Shown here: one piece after another, positions 57,497-60,691 of the stretch
Position numbering within the stretch: the stretch's first letter is position 1
Layout: every line of letters starts with the position of its first letter
Assembly: GCA_947630805.1 (NCBI GenBank)
Contig: CANRIV010000003.1
Span: forward strand, 124,001 to 188,000
Direction: 5' to 3'
Source of the DNA: an uncultured Lachnospiraceae bacterium
Lineage (GTDB): Bacteria; Bacillota; Clostridia; Lachnospirales; Lachnospiraceae
Length of the DNA: 64,000 bases
Translations under genes and position numbers: made by a program
The notes under the pieces: model-generated
What the model was told of the DNA's origin: nothing
Seen by the model: only the letters and a program-made list of their open reading frames with translations
Database searches by the model: none

Positions 57497-59545
57497 ATGA
57501 GAGAAGAATGGACAGGATTTAATGGTGGCGCTTGGGAAAAAGAAGTCAACGTCAGAGATTTTATCCAGAAAAACTACACACCATATGATGGTGATGCAAG
57601 CTTTTTAGCTGGACCTACGCAGGCTACAAAGGATTTGTGGGAACAGGTTCTTGACCTTCAGAAGAAGGAGAGAGAAGCCGGTGGTGTCCTTGACATGGAT
57701 ACAAAAGTAGTTACAGGAATTACAGCACATGGTGCAGGTTACCTTGATAAAGAGAAAGAGAAAATCGTAGGATTCCAGACAGATAAACCATTTAAGAGAG
57801 CTCTTCACGTAAATGGTGGTATCCGTATGGCAATTCAGGCATGTTCAGACAATGGTTATGAGGTAGACCCTGAAGTTGTTGATTTTTATACAAATTATAG
57901 AAAGACACACAACGCAGGTGTATTTGATGTTTATACTCCAGAGATGAGAGCCTGCAGATCAAGCCATGTTATCACAGGTCTTCCAGATGCTTACGGACGT
58001 GGACGTATTATCGGTGATTACAGAAGAGTAGCTTTGTATGGTGTTGAGAGACTGATTGAAGATAAAGAAGCACAGAAAGCTGCTACACCTACTGTTATGA
58101 CAGCGGAAGTAATTCGTGACAGAGAAGAATATTCTGAGCAGATTAGAGCATTAAAGCAACTGATTGAATTAGGAAAGATTTACGGATTTGATATTTCGCA
58201 ACCTGCAAAGAATGTACAGGAAGCAATCCAGTGGACATATCTTGCATACCTTGCAGTTGTTAAAGATCAGAACGGTGCAGCAATGTCACTGGGACGTACA
58301 TCTACATTTATTGATATTTATGCTGAGAGAGACTTGGCAAACGGAACATTTACAGAAGAGGAAATTCAGGAATTTATCGATCATTTCATTATGAAGTTAA
58401 GATGTGTTAAGTTCTCAAGAACACCTGACTACAATGATATTTTCTCAGGCGACCCTGTATGGGTAACAGAATCTATCGGTGGTGTAGGAATTGATGGACG
58501 TCACATGGTTACAAAGAATTCCTTCAGATATCTTCATACATTGGAAAACTTAGGTGCAGCGCCTGAGCCAAACCTTACAGTTCTCTGGTCTACAAGACTT
58601 CCTGAGGCATTCAAGAGATATTGTGCTAAACTTTCTATCGAATACTCATCCATGCAGTATGAGAATGACGACCTTATGAGAGTAACACACGGTGATGATT
58701 ATGCGATTGCATGTTGTGTATCTTCCATGAGAGTGGGTAAGGAAATGCAGTTCTTTGGTGCGAGAGCAAACCTTGCAAAATGTCTGCTCTACGCAATCAA
58801 CGGTGGTGTTGATGAAAAGACAAAGAAACAGGTTGGACCAAAGTACAGACCATTTGAGGGAGAATATCTTGATTATGACCAGGTAATGGCATTATTTGAA
58901 GATATGATGAAATGGCTTGCAGGTGTATACGTAAATGCTTTGAATATTATTCACTACATGCACGATAAATACTGCTATGAAGCAATTCAGATGGCACTTC
59001 ATGATGCACATGTTAAGAGATGGTTTGCTACCGGTGTGGCAGGTCTTTCCATCGTTGCAGATTCCTTCTCAGCTATGAAGTATGCTAAGGTTAAGGTCAT
59101 CAGAGATGAAGATGGTCTTGCAGTAGATTATGAGATTGAAGGAGACTTCCCTAAATACGGTAACGATGATGACAGAGTTGACCAGATTGCAGTAGACATT
59201 GTTAATAAATTTATGGGATACCTGAGACAGCATCATACTTACAGAGACAGTATTCCAACACAGTCTATCCTTACAATTACTTCTAATGTAGTTTATGGTA
59301 GAGCAACAGGTAACACACCTGACGGAAGAAGAGCCGGAGAGCCATTTGCACCGGGAGCTAATCCACTTCATGGTAGAGATAAGAACGGCGCTGTAGCATC
59401 TCTTGCTTCTGTAGCTAAGATTCCATTTATGAATGCACAGGATGGTATTTCCAATACATTTACAATCATTCCTGACGCATTAGGAAAAGATGACAAGGTA
59501 ATTGCCGGAGATATTGATATCCCAGGATTTAAGCCTGCAGAATAA
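57497..59545 (+). CDS. pflB: Pyruvate formate-lyase core lacking the glycyl-radical C-terminal domain
   Basis: A 682-aa protein. The catalytic cysteines are Cys406-Cys407 in [27 protein letters not shown] and [17 protein letters not shown] segments match PFL throughout. E. coli PflB is 760 aa; this chain stops after [20 protein letters not shown] and a short tail ([10 protein letters not shown]), exactly before the domain that carries the radical glycine. That domain is encoded separately at 60443-60691, after pflA. Together they should cleave pyruvate with CoA to acetyl-CoA and formate. Ribosome site AGGAGG. Codon use looks optimised for high expression. Confidence 0.93.
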
Positions 59546-59626
59546 TAAAAAGCACAACAGGAACATAAAACAGTTTCTGGAAATGCTTCAAGGTAAATAA
59601 AATTTTGAAATAAGGAACTATTCAGA

Positions 59627-60382
59627 ATGGCAACAGGTATGATTCATTCCATTGAAAGCTGTGGAACAGTAGACGGACCAGGAGTACGATTTGTCGTATT
59701 TTTTAAAGGATGTCCGATGAGATGTTTATATTGTCACAATCCCGACACCTGGGAAATGACAGGTGGAGAAGAAATGACAGTAGAGCAGCTGATGGCAGAA
59801 TATGAAAAGAAAAGACCTTTTTATGAAACAGGAGGAATTACTGCTACAGGCGGTGAGCCTATGGTACAGTTGGAATTTCTTACAGAACTTTTTGAGGAGT
59901 CGAAGAAAAGGAAGATTCATACCTGTCTGGATACATCCGGCACGATGTTTCAGCCGGATAATCCGGAATACCTGAAAAAGGTAGACCGGTTACTGGAAGT
60001 AACAGATTTGGTCATGTTGGACATCAAACATATTAATCCGGAAGAACATTGGAAATTATGTAAGCGTCCGAACGAAAATATTCTGGCATTTGCCAAATAT
60101 CTGGATAAAAAAAATATTGAAATATGGATTCGACATGTATGTGTTCCCAATATTACAATAAATAAAAAGTATCTGTATCAGCTGGGAGAATTTATCGGAA
60201 CATTGAAAAATCTCAAAGCGATTGATGTTCTTCCTTACCATGATATGGGAAAGGTAAAATATGAACAGCTGGGAATAGAATATCCGATTCCCGATATAAA
60301 GCCTGCGACAAAGGAAATGGCGATTGCCTGTCGCAAGGTGATTTTGAAGGGAGTAAAAGATATTCGGGAAAAAATAAGTTAA
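59627..60382 (+). CDS. pflA: Pyruvate formate-lyase activating enzyme
   Basis: A 251-aa radical SAM activase. The cluster cysteines are Cys29, Cys33 and Cys36 in KGCPMRCLYCHNPDTW; GGITATGGEPMVQ is the SAM-binding segment, and VMLDIKHINPEEH is typical. It abstracts hydrogen from the glycine of the radical domain, here presumably the separate small protein encoded 60 bases downstream. The length is normal. It lies between the two halves of its substrate enzyme. Confidence 0.95.
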   Translation: MATGMIHSIESCGTVDGPGVRFVVFFKGCPMRCLYCHNPDTWEMTGGEEMTVEQLMAEYEKKRPFYETGGITATGGEPMVQLEFLTELFEESKKRKIHTCLDTSGTMFQPDNPEYLKKVDRLLEVTDLVMLDIKHINPEEHWKLCKRPNENILAFAKYLDKKNIEIWIRHVCVPNITINKKYLYQLGEFIGTLKNLKAIDVLPYHDMGKVKYEQLGIEYPIPDIKPATKEMAIACRKVILKGVKDIREKIS

Positions 60383-60389
60383 TTAAACA

Positions 60390-60413
60390 TGATTTTCATA
60401 AAAACGAAAATCA
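60390..60413 (+). other. Hairpin between pflA and the glycyl-radical subunit gene
   Basis: TGATTTTC (60390-60397) and GAAAATCA (60406-60413) with an 8-base loop, no T-run after it. Could stabilise or process the mRNA so that the small subunit is made in a different amount. Confidence 0.45.
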
Positions 60414-60442
60414 AATTCATAAATAATAAGGAGGAGAATAAG

Positions 60443-60691
60443 ATGGCAGCTAGCGAGAAACAGGTTGATAATTTAGTAGCATTGTTAGATGGATATGCAG
60501 CAGAGGGTGGACATCATCTGAATGTTAATGTATTACAGAAAGATACATTATTGGATGCACAGGCACATCCTGAAAAATATCCACAGCTTACAGTTCGTGT
60601 CTCCGGATATGCGGTAAACTTTATTAAACTGACAAAGGAACAGCAGGATGATGTAATTCACAGAACATTCCATGCAAGCACAGGTCTGTAA
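60443..60691 (+). CDS. Separate glycyl-radical subunit of pyruvate formate-lyase (GrcA-like)
   Basis: An 82-aa protein equal to the missing C-terminus of Pfl[41 protein letters not shown], ending [15 protein letters not shown]. The radical glycine is Gly55 in RVSGYAV. In E. coli GrcA (YfiD) a similar stand-alone protein rescues oxygen-damaged PFL that still has its own glycine domain; here the partner core lacks that domain, so this protein should be essential for activity. The ATG at 60443 follows AAGGAGGAG; the upstream frame from 60389 lacks a ribosome site. A terminator follows. Confidence 0.92.

What the first reader, a model, noticed from the sequence alone, without database searches (positions are those of the whole stretch)
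57497..60691. Split pyruvate formate-lyase: core, activase and glycyl-radical domain are three genes
PflB (682 aa) contains the Cys-Cys site but ends precisely before the glycine-radical domain. The missing domain (with RVSGYAV) is a separate 82-aa protein, and pflA lies between them. In E. coli the free radical subunit GrcA is only a repair spare for a complete PflB; here it must be an obligate subunit. This could let the cell replace an oxygen-cleaved radical domain cheaply and make the enzyme repairable by design.
Basis: partly seen in the sequence, partly recalled or inferred. Interest (0 to 1): 0.85.

Follow-up and report, generated by a model that had tools for sequence, protein, structure and literature searches.

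The report
Pyruvate formate-lyase in two pieces
In this bacterium the enzyme that turns pyruvate into formate and acetyl-CoA appears to be built from two separate proteins, with the oxygen-fragile radical-carrying end made as its own small part; many relatives do the same, so this is an enzyme layout in its own right rather than a broken gene, and it may let cells swap the fragile part cheaply.

Summary
PflB core (682 aa, Cys406-Cys407), pflA and an 82-aa glycyl-radical protein (RVSGYAV, Gly55) are three genes closed by a strong terminator-like hairpin. The 98.8%-complete genome shows no other PFL; pflA lies between the pieces, so read-through cannot rejoin them.

It is not a local oddity. In the window's family at least 96 of 250 genomes (one per genus) carry the stand-alone piece. 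Of 140 stand-alone pieces examined, 121 follow a truncated core, 4 sit at contig edges beside pflA, and 15 are further copies in genomes that also hold the operon; none adjoins a fused PFL. Only 4 of 123 such genomes also show a full-length PflB. NCBI calls the piece "GrcA3", an autonomous cofactor; the genomes say obligate subunit.

New details: 119 of 120 split cores carry an added C-terminal tail, a candidate docking element; two fused lineages nest inside the split clade (probable re-fusion; AU tests mixed); viral contigs carry the small piece.

"Repairable by design" is plausible but untested. Two 2026 PDB chains lack the domain, so others may be studying this. Best reading: a two-subunit, possibly reversible variant of PFL.

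The parts
57497..59545 (+). pflB core subunit, 682 aa, formate C-acetyltransferase lacking the glycyl-radical loop
   Evidence: TIGR01255 1101.5 bits, profile 2-665/744; PF02901 722.2 bits
58712..58717 (+). codons of the catalytic pair Cys406-Cys407
   Evidence: sequence; invariant in 39 aligned rows
59492..59542 (+). last 17 codons: C-terminal tail in place of the covalent link to the radical domain; candidate docking element
   Evidence: 10 or more residues after LGK in 119 of 120 split cores; 52 of 52 ordinary fused PFLs have a constant short link instead
59627..60382 (+). pflA, radical SAM activase, 251 aa
   Evidence: TIGR02493 293.5 bits, cut-off 231.75
60428..60436 (+). ribosome-binding-site-like AAGGAGGAG of the small gene
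   Evidence: sequence
60443..60691 (+). small radical subunit (GrcA3 family), 82 aa
   Evidence: NF038360 161.3 bits, cut-off 158; PF01228 positions 49-106
60605..60607 (+). codon of Gly55, the radical-site glycine of RVSGYAV
   Evidence: sequence; aligns with the RVSGYAV loop of E. coli PFL 1h16
60708..60763 (+). long hairpin with a run of U: terminator-like end of the operon
   Evidence: -27.5 kcal/mol, z -7.8; the simple terminator scan, limited to loops of 3-8 bases, did not list it

Best explanation
A two-subunit pyruvate formate-lyase. The 682-aa core holds the active-site barrel and the Cys406-Cys407 pair; the 82-aa subunit supplies the last strand, the glycyl-radical loop and the C-terminal helix. 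PflA installs the radical on Gly55 of the small subunit, most likely in complex with the core; the loop sits beside Cys406/Cys407, the radical moves to cysteine, and pyruvate plus CoA becomes formate plus acetyl-CoA. Shown here: the genes, their partnership across genomes, and that no other PFL was found in this genome. Inferred from known PFL biochemistry: radical transfer and catalysis. Inferred only: the core's added tail recruits the small subunit, and after oxygen cleavage of the loop only the 82-aa part must be replaced.
For: No second PFL in the genome. Partnership: 121 of 140 stand-alone pieces follow a truncated core, none beside a fused one; of 123 other genomes with the piece, 122 have a PflB match at E<=1e-100 (a few are fragments at contig ends), the last (G068) has only a core fragment, and 4 have a full-length PflB besides. 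Of 80 named loci, 80 hold stand-alone pieces and 70 lie beside a core, contig-end fragments included; 4 of the 80 repeat loci of the unnamed set. Complementary profile coverage, 2-665 and 663-742. RxSGYAV in 140 of 140. Core and small distances of 119 pairs correlate, r 0.53, not corrected for shared ancestry. E. coli precedent: truncated PFL 1-695 plus YfiD is as active as wild type once activated (PMC8683613, Discussion part 1); PflB-G734A plus GrcA gives intermediate formate (PMC12338860, passages).
Against: No experiment. In E. coli the closest engineered split bound YfiD undetectably and gave 32-fold less radical, so docking needs something that E. coli lacks; the tail is only a candidate. 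The predicted window-core model leaves residues 651-682 under pLDDT 50 and says nothing about the tail. A complex was not modelled. Several of the 123 genomes are incomplete, so a full-length PflB could be missing from an assembly.
Confidence: 0.85

Rival explanations
1. The small protein is an ordinary GrcA-type spare part and the truncated core is inactive, decayed or has another job.
For: NCBI names the small family 'autonomous glycyl radical cofactor GrcA3'; 15 of 124 genomes carry a further copy with no core in the stretch fetched, one of them cut by a contig end.
Against: A spare needs a complete enzyme: no full-length PflB was found in 119 of 123 genomes or in the window's. Active-site residues are conserved in the cores. 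The small protein lacks the roughly 60-residue N-terminal arm of YfiD described in PMC8683613.
Confidence: 0.04
2. Assembly error, frameshift or recent gene breakage.
For: The two pieces together cover one PFL profile.
Against: pflA sits between them and both have good ribosome sites; the split recurs in 124 genomes and in named strains such as Ruminococcus bicirculans 80/3, R. albus KH2T6 and Claveliimonas bilis c-25.
Confidence: 0.01
3. The enzyme is two-part, but the split is a near-neutral accident without a repair advantage.
For: Two fused groups nest among the split cores and their radical domains nest among the small proteins, so the state seems reversible. The window genome has a single small gene, inside the operon.
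Against: The split form is kept in at least 96 of 250 genera of the family; further small-gene copies exist; 7 of 22 solo loci lie near a Crp/Fnr-type regulator; viral contigs carry the small piece. None of this measures an advantage.
Confidence: 0.4
4. The pieces are joined after translation (split intein or trans-splicing).
For: None found.
Against: The extra residues are about 17 in the window's core and fewer than 10 in its small protein, too few for an intein (general knowledge); the Pfam scan listed no intein family.
Confidence: 0.01

Closest known systems
Escherichia coli PflB (PDB 2pfl, 1h16), TIGR01255
   Same: Same core fold and Cys-Cys pair; the window-core model aligns with 2pfl over 656 columns at 63% identity; same activase family.
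   Different: E. coli carries the radical domain in the same chain (759 residues); here it is a separate gene and the core has a tail.
E. coli GrcA/YfiD and phage T4 Y06I spare-part proteins
   Same: Small glycyl-radical protein that restores PFL (PMC8683613, passages and Discussion part 1).
   Different: Those repair a complete enzyme, and YfiD has a disordered 60-residue N-terminal arm; this one is 82 aa and partners a core encoded without the domain.
NCBIfam NF038360, GrcA3
   Same: The small protein is a scoring member (161.3, cut-off 158); a Collinsella aerofaciens pflB-grcA3 pair is annotated so.
   Different: The name says autonomous cofactor; the genome evidence says obligate subunit.
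PDB 38la and 38lb, 'Formate acetyltransferase'
   Same: Best solved matches of the core; neither was hit by the small protein, and 38lb continues past the junction.
   Different: Not identical to the three cores queried; organism and purpose are not shown by the tools; 38la could be an engineered truncation.

Membership tests
Pyruvate formate-lyase (TIGR01255) | PFL barrel above the curated cut-off | tested here: met
   1101.5 against 994.2 bits
Pyruvate formate-lyase (TIGR01255) | adjacent catalytic cysteines | tested here: met
   Cys406-Cys407
Pyruvate formate-lyase (TIGR01255) | glycyl-radical loop in the same chain | tested here: not met
   core ends at profile 665 of 744; the loop is a separate gene
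Pyruvate formate-lyase (TIGR01255) | PflA-type activase beside it | tested here: met
   TIGR02493 293.5 bits, cut-off 231.75
Pyruvate formate-lyase (TIGR01255) | glycyl radical and pyruvate formate-lyase activity | not testable with these tools
   needs EPR and assay
GrcA spare-part protein (E. coli YfiD type, TIGR04365) | passes the curated family cut-off | tested here: not met
   95.4 bits, cut-off 170
GrcA spare-part protein (E. coli YfiD type, TIGR04365) | a complete PflB to repair | tested here: not met
   none found in the own genome; 4 of 123 related genomes have one
GrcA3 (NF038360) | passes the curated cut-off as a stand-alone protein | tested here: met
   161.3, cut-off 158
GrcA3 (NF038360) | acts as an autonomous (dispensable) cofactor | not testable with these tools
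   the genome partnership argues otherwise

The most novel reading that the evidence does not exclude
PFL is a modular enzyme whose oxygen-fragile part is a consumable, exchangeable subunit: fission produced a core with a new C-terminal docking tail; cells keep extra subunit genes, viruses bring their own, and the architecture has reverted to a single chain at least twice.
Probability: 0.3. Interest if true: 0.85.

Novelty: new variant of a known kind. Interest (0 to 1): 0.62.

Why it matters
PFL is a main route from sugar to acetyl-CoA and formate in anaerobes. If close to two fifths of the genera sampled in one family (at least 96 of 250) use a two-part form, the labels 'formate C-acetyltransferase' plus 'autonomous cofactor GrcA3' misdescribe the enzyme, and cloning such a pflB alone would be expected to give an inactive protein. 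The natural split also makes two questions testable: how the radical loop is exchanged, and what makes it dock, the step at which the engineered E. coli split fails.

Tried and rejected
Structure models: the window core reached mean pLDDT 81 but residues 651-682 are below 50; a Cys-tailed core from Claveliimonas reached only 66. Neither informs the tail; a two-chain model was not possible. Foldseek confirmed the PFL fold; 38la/38lb are not among its 50 listed rows (library up to 8 April 2026), which suggests later release (inference).

Re-fusion tests gave mixed results. FastTree on 177 of 178 cores (G477 dropped for gaps) and a quick IQ-TREE on 63 chosen rows both nest two fused groups within the split clade, but AU p-values were 0.051 for both together, 0.223 for G142 alone and 0.047 for the group of five alone; the groups were named after the tree was seen. 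One split core, G466, falls outside the main clade on a long branch, so a second fission is not excluded. A further fused PFL noted early as GrcA3-like (G101, 141 bits) did not nest with the small proteins. GrcA3 score alone does not separate split from fused in the family: two fused proteins (G142, G120) pass the cut-off.

A first regular expression for link length was unreliable and was replaced.

A regulator link is weak: a Crp/Fnr-type gene like the window's lies in 7 of 124 operon loci of the genomes, 7 of 22 solo loci, 0 of 73 other named loci and, with shorter flanks, 2 of 58 fused loci. The promoter scan found no more sites than shuffles.

Literature: no paper on a split PFL was found in the open PMC library; subscription papers and preprints could not be searched, so absence from print is not claimed. 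Seen: Discussion part 1 and passages of PMC8683613; passages only of PMC12338860, PMC12288474, PMC11979175, PMC9403272 and PMC5476646; other papers as search listings.

Full report
What is there. The window carries, on one strand, a 682-aa pflB core (57497-59545), pflA (59627-60382) and an 82-aa glycyl-radical protein (60443-60691). The core matches TIGR01255 positions 2-665 of 744 with 1101.5 bits, over the 994.2 cut-off, so an automatic pipeline would name it formate C-acetyltransferase; the small protein matches positions 663-742 of the same profile and passes the GrcA3 model NF038360. A very stable hairpin with a run of U follows the small gene (-27.5 kcal/mol, z -7.8), which fits a three-gene transcript, though there are no RNA data. 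Because pflA lies between, neither read-through nor a frameshift can make a full-length protein.

Only PFL found in the genome. The window's genome (1.84 Mb, 26 contigs, 98.8% complete) has one PFL-like match and three Gly_radical matches: the core end, the small protein and an anaerobic ribonucleotide reductase. It also has partial matches to the single-chain pyruvate:ferredoxin oxidoreductase model TIGR02176, none over its cut-off, so PFL may not be its only route to acetyl-CoA.

How common. In the window's family, one genome per genus, stand-alone pieces are listed in 96 of 250 genomes, the window's included; in the wider class draw in 17 of 292 (counted from rows, and both lists are cut at weak matches, so these are lower bounds). 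In the class draw the listed stand-alone hits score 152 bits or more and fused ones 143 or less; in the family some fused proteins score higher. I fetched 139 stand-alone loci and had the window: 121 of 140 have a truncated core upstream on the same strand (94 core-small-pflA, 16 core-pflA-small, 10 core-small, 1 pflA-core-small), 4 are small-pflA at contig ends, 15 have no core in the stretch (one of these, L204, is cut by a contig end), and none neighbours a fused PFL. The 15 solo copies are in genomes that also have the operon (15 of 15). Of the 123 other genomes, 122 have a PflB match at E<=1e-100, some only as fragments, and 4 (G131, G165, G178, G522) also have a full-length one. The window's order, core-pflA-small, is found in 14 fetched same-genus genomes, in the window and in one other genus, G176.

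Names. In 80 of 80 the piece is stand-alone; 70 lie beside a core (contig-end fragments counted), 3 beside pflA only and 7 are solo. Four of the 80 repeat loci of the unnamed set. Records named to strain include Ruminococcus bicirculans 80/3, R. albus KH2T6 and Claveliimonas bilis c-25; MAGs are labelled Lachnospiraceae, Oscillospiraceae, Erysipelotrichaceae, Gastranaerophilales and Spirochaetales, labels that may be wrong. A Collinsella aerofaciens record has pflB next to grcA3. L233 ('Eubacterium sp.', goat duodenum) and L234 ('Lachnospiraceae bacterium') hold the same small gene as the same-genus locus L198 and the same-family locus L099, so the window is most likely from a Lachnospiraceae relative (inference).

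The tail. In 52 of 52 ordinary fused PFLs the stretch from LG to the DGY of the radical-domain helix has one constant length, 13 residues. Split cores instead end in an added tail: 10 residues or more after LGK in 119 of 120, a [VI][FILMVA]x(1-2)[GD][DE][LI] pattern in 106 of 120 and two or more cysteines in 39 of 120; the exception is G466. The 64 named cores with over 900 bits (of 70) agree: 64 of 64 with a tail, 20 of 64 with two or more cysteines. The patterns were chosen after seeing the sequences. Why a tail might matter: in E. coli, removing residues 696-733 abolished measurable YfiD binding and cut radical formation 32-fold, although the complex, once activated, was as active as wild type (PMC8683613). 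The split enzyme's core lacks that segment and its small subunit lacks YfiD's long arm, so it must dock differently; the tail is the obvious candidate (inference).

Re-fusion. On the core trees the split cores form one clade apart from G466, and two fused groups nest inside it: G033, G120, G154, G189, G221; and G142. The radical domains of exactly these six, and of none of the other 52 fused PFLs, fall inside the clade of small proteins. G142 also has 24 extra residues, three of them cysteines, between LG and the helix, as a leftover tail would look; the five others have ordinary link lengths. Against: the AU tests are borderline or not significant (p 0.051, 0.223, 0.047). I hold two re-fusions as likely, not proven.

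Viruses. In viral contigs, 17 of 20 matches are stand-alone pieces, 14 without and 3 with a PFL core within the stretch; 2 are fused PFLs and 1 is a longer GrcA-like protein. On a 333-kb contig (L318) the gene lies between nrdD and an nrdG-like gene; on L317 it lies after nrdD and before a PFL core that is itself in two ORFs, and L329 is identical to L317 over small and core. Class III ribonucleotide reductase takes its reducing equivalents from formate (PMC12288474, passage), so supplying formate is a reasonable guess. The viral nature of these contigs rests on the collection's label and on a few phage-family hits.

What is known. Spare-part proteins YfiD and T4 Y06I are described (PMC8683613). 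NCBI already has a GrcA3 family, and two PDB chains named formate acetyltransferase (38la, 38lb) are the best solved matches of the core while the small protein does not match them; no small partner chain was found at E up to 1. I found no open paper describing a split PFL (searches listed under Tried and rejected). The finding is therefore rated a new variant of a known kind, quite possibly under study elsewhere.

Verdict. Two-part PFL: very likely. Repair by subunit exchange: plausible, untested. Tail as dock: a good, cheap hypothesis to test.

Noticed in passing
L313-L329 (viral contigs): Seventeen viral contigs carry the stand-alone radical subunit; L318 (333-kb contig) has nrdD-small-nrdG-like, L316 a truncated core plus small, L317 nrdD-small followed by a PFL core in two ORFs (L329 identical over small and core).
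   Followed up: partly
L032 (G142) and L021, L023, L026, L027, L034: Fused PFLs whose core and radical domain both group with the split form; G142 keeps a cysteine-containing linker of 24 extra residues. Likely re-fusions.
   Followed up: partly
L097, L106, L123, L126, L132, L151, L153, L154, L159, L161, L164, L174, L178, L181, L204: Further copies of the small gene with no core nearby; several share neighbours that look like spoIIIA genes (recognised by eye), others lie next to a Crp/Fnr-type regulator.
   Followed up: partly
window 55956-56600 (-): Crp/Fnr-family regulator about 0.9 kb before pflB with a nitroreductase gene (56858-57412) between; a close relative lies in 6 of the fetched same-genus loci.
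   Followed up: partly
Cysteine-rich tails of split cores, e.g. L281 2848-4962: A subset of tails carries a C...AC-x-x-P-[NT] element, often followed by a GLD-like end; role unknown, could be redox-sensitive or metal-binding.
   Followed up: no
L194 (G466): A split core without a tail, outside the main split clade on a long branch; PDB chain 38la also ends at this point.
   Followed up: partly
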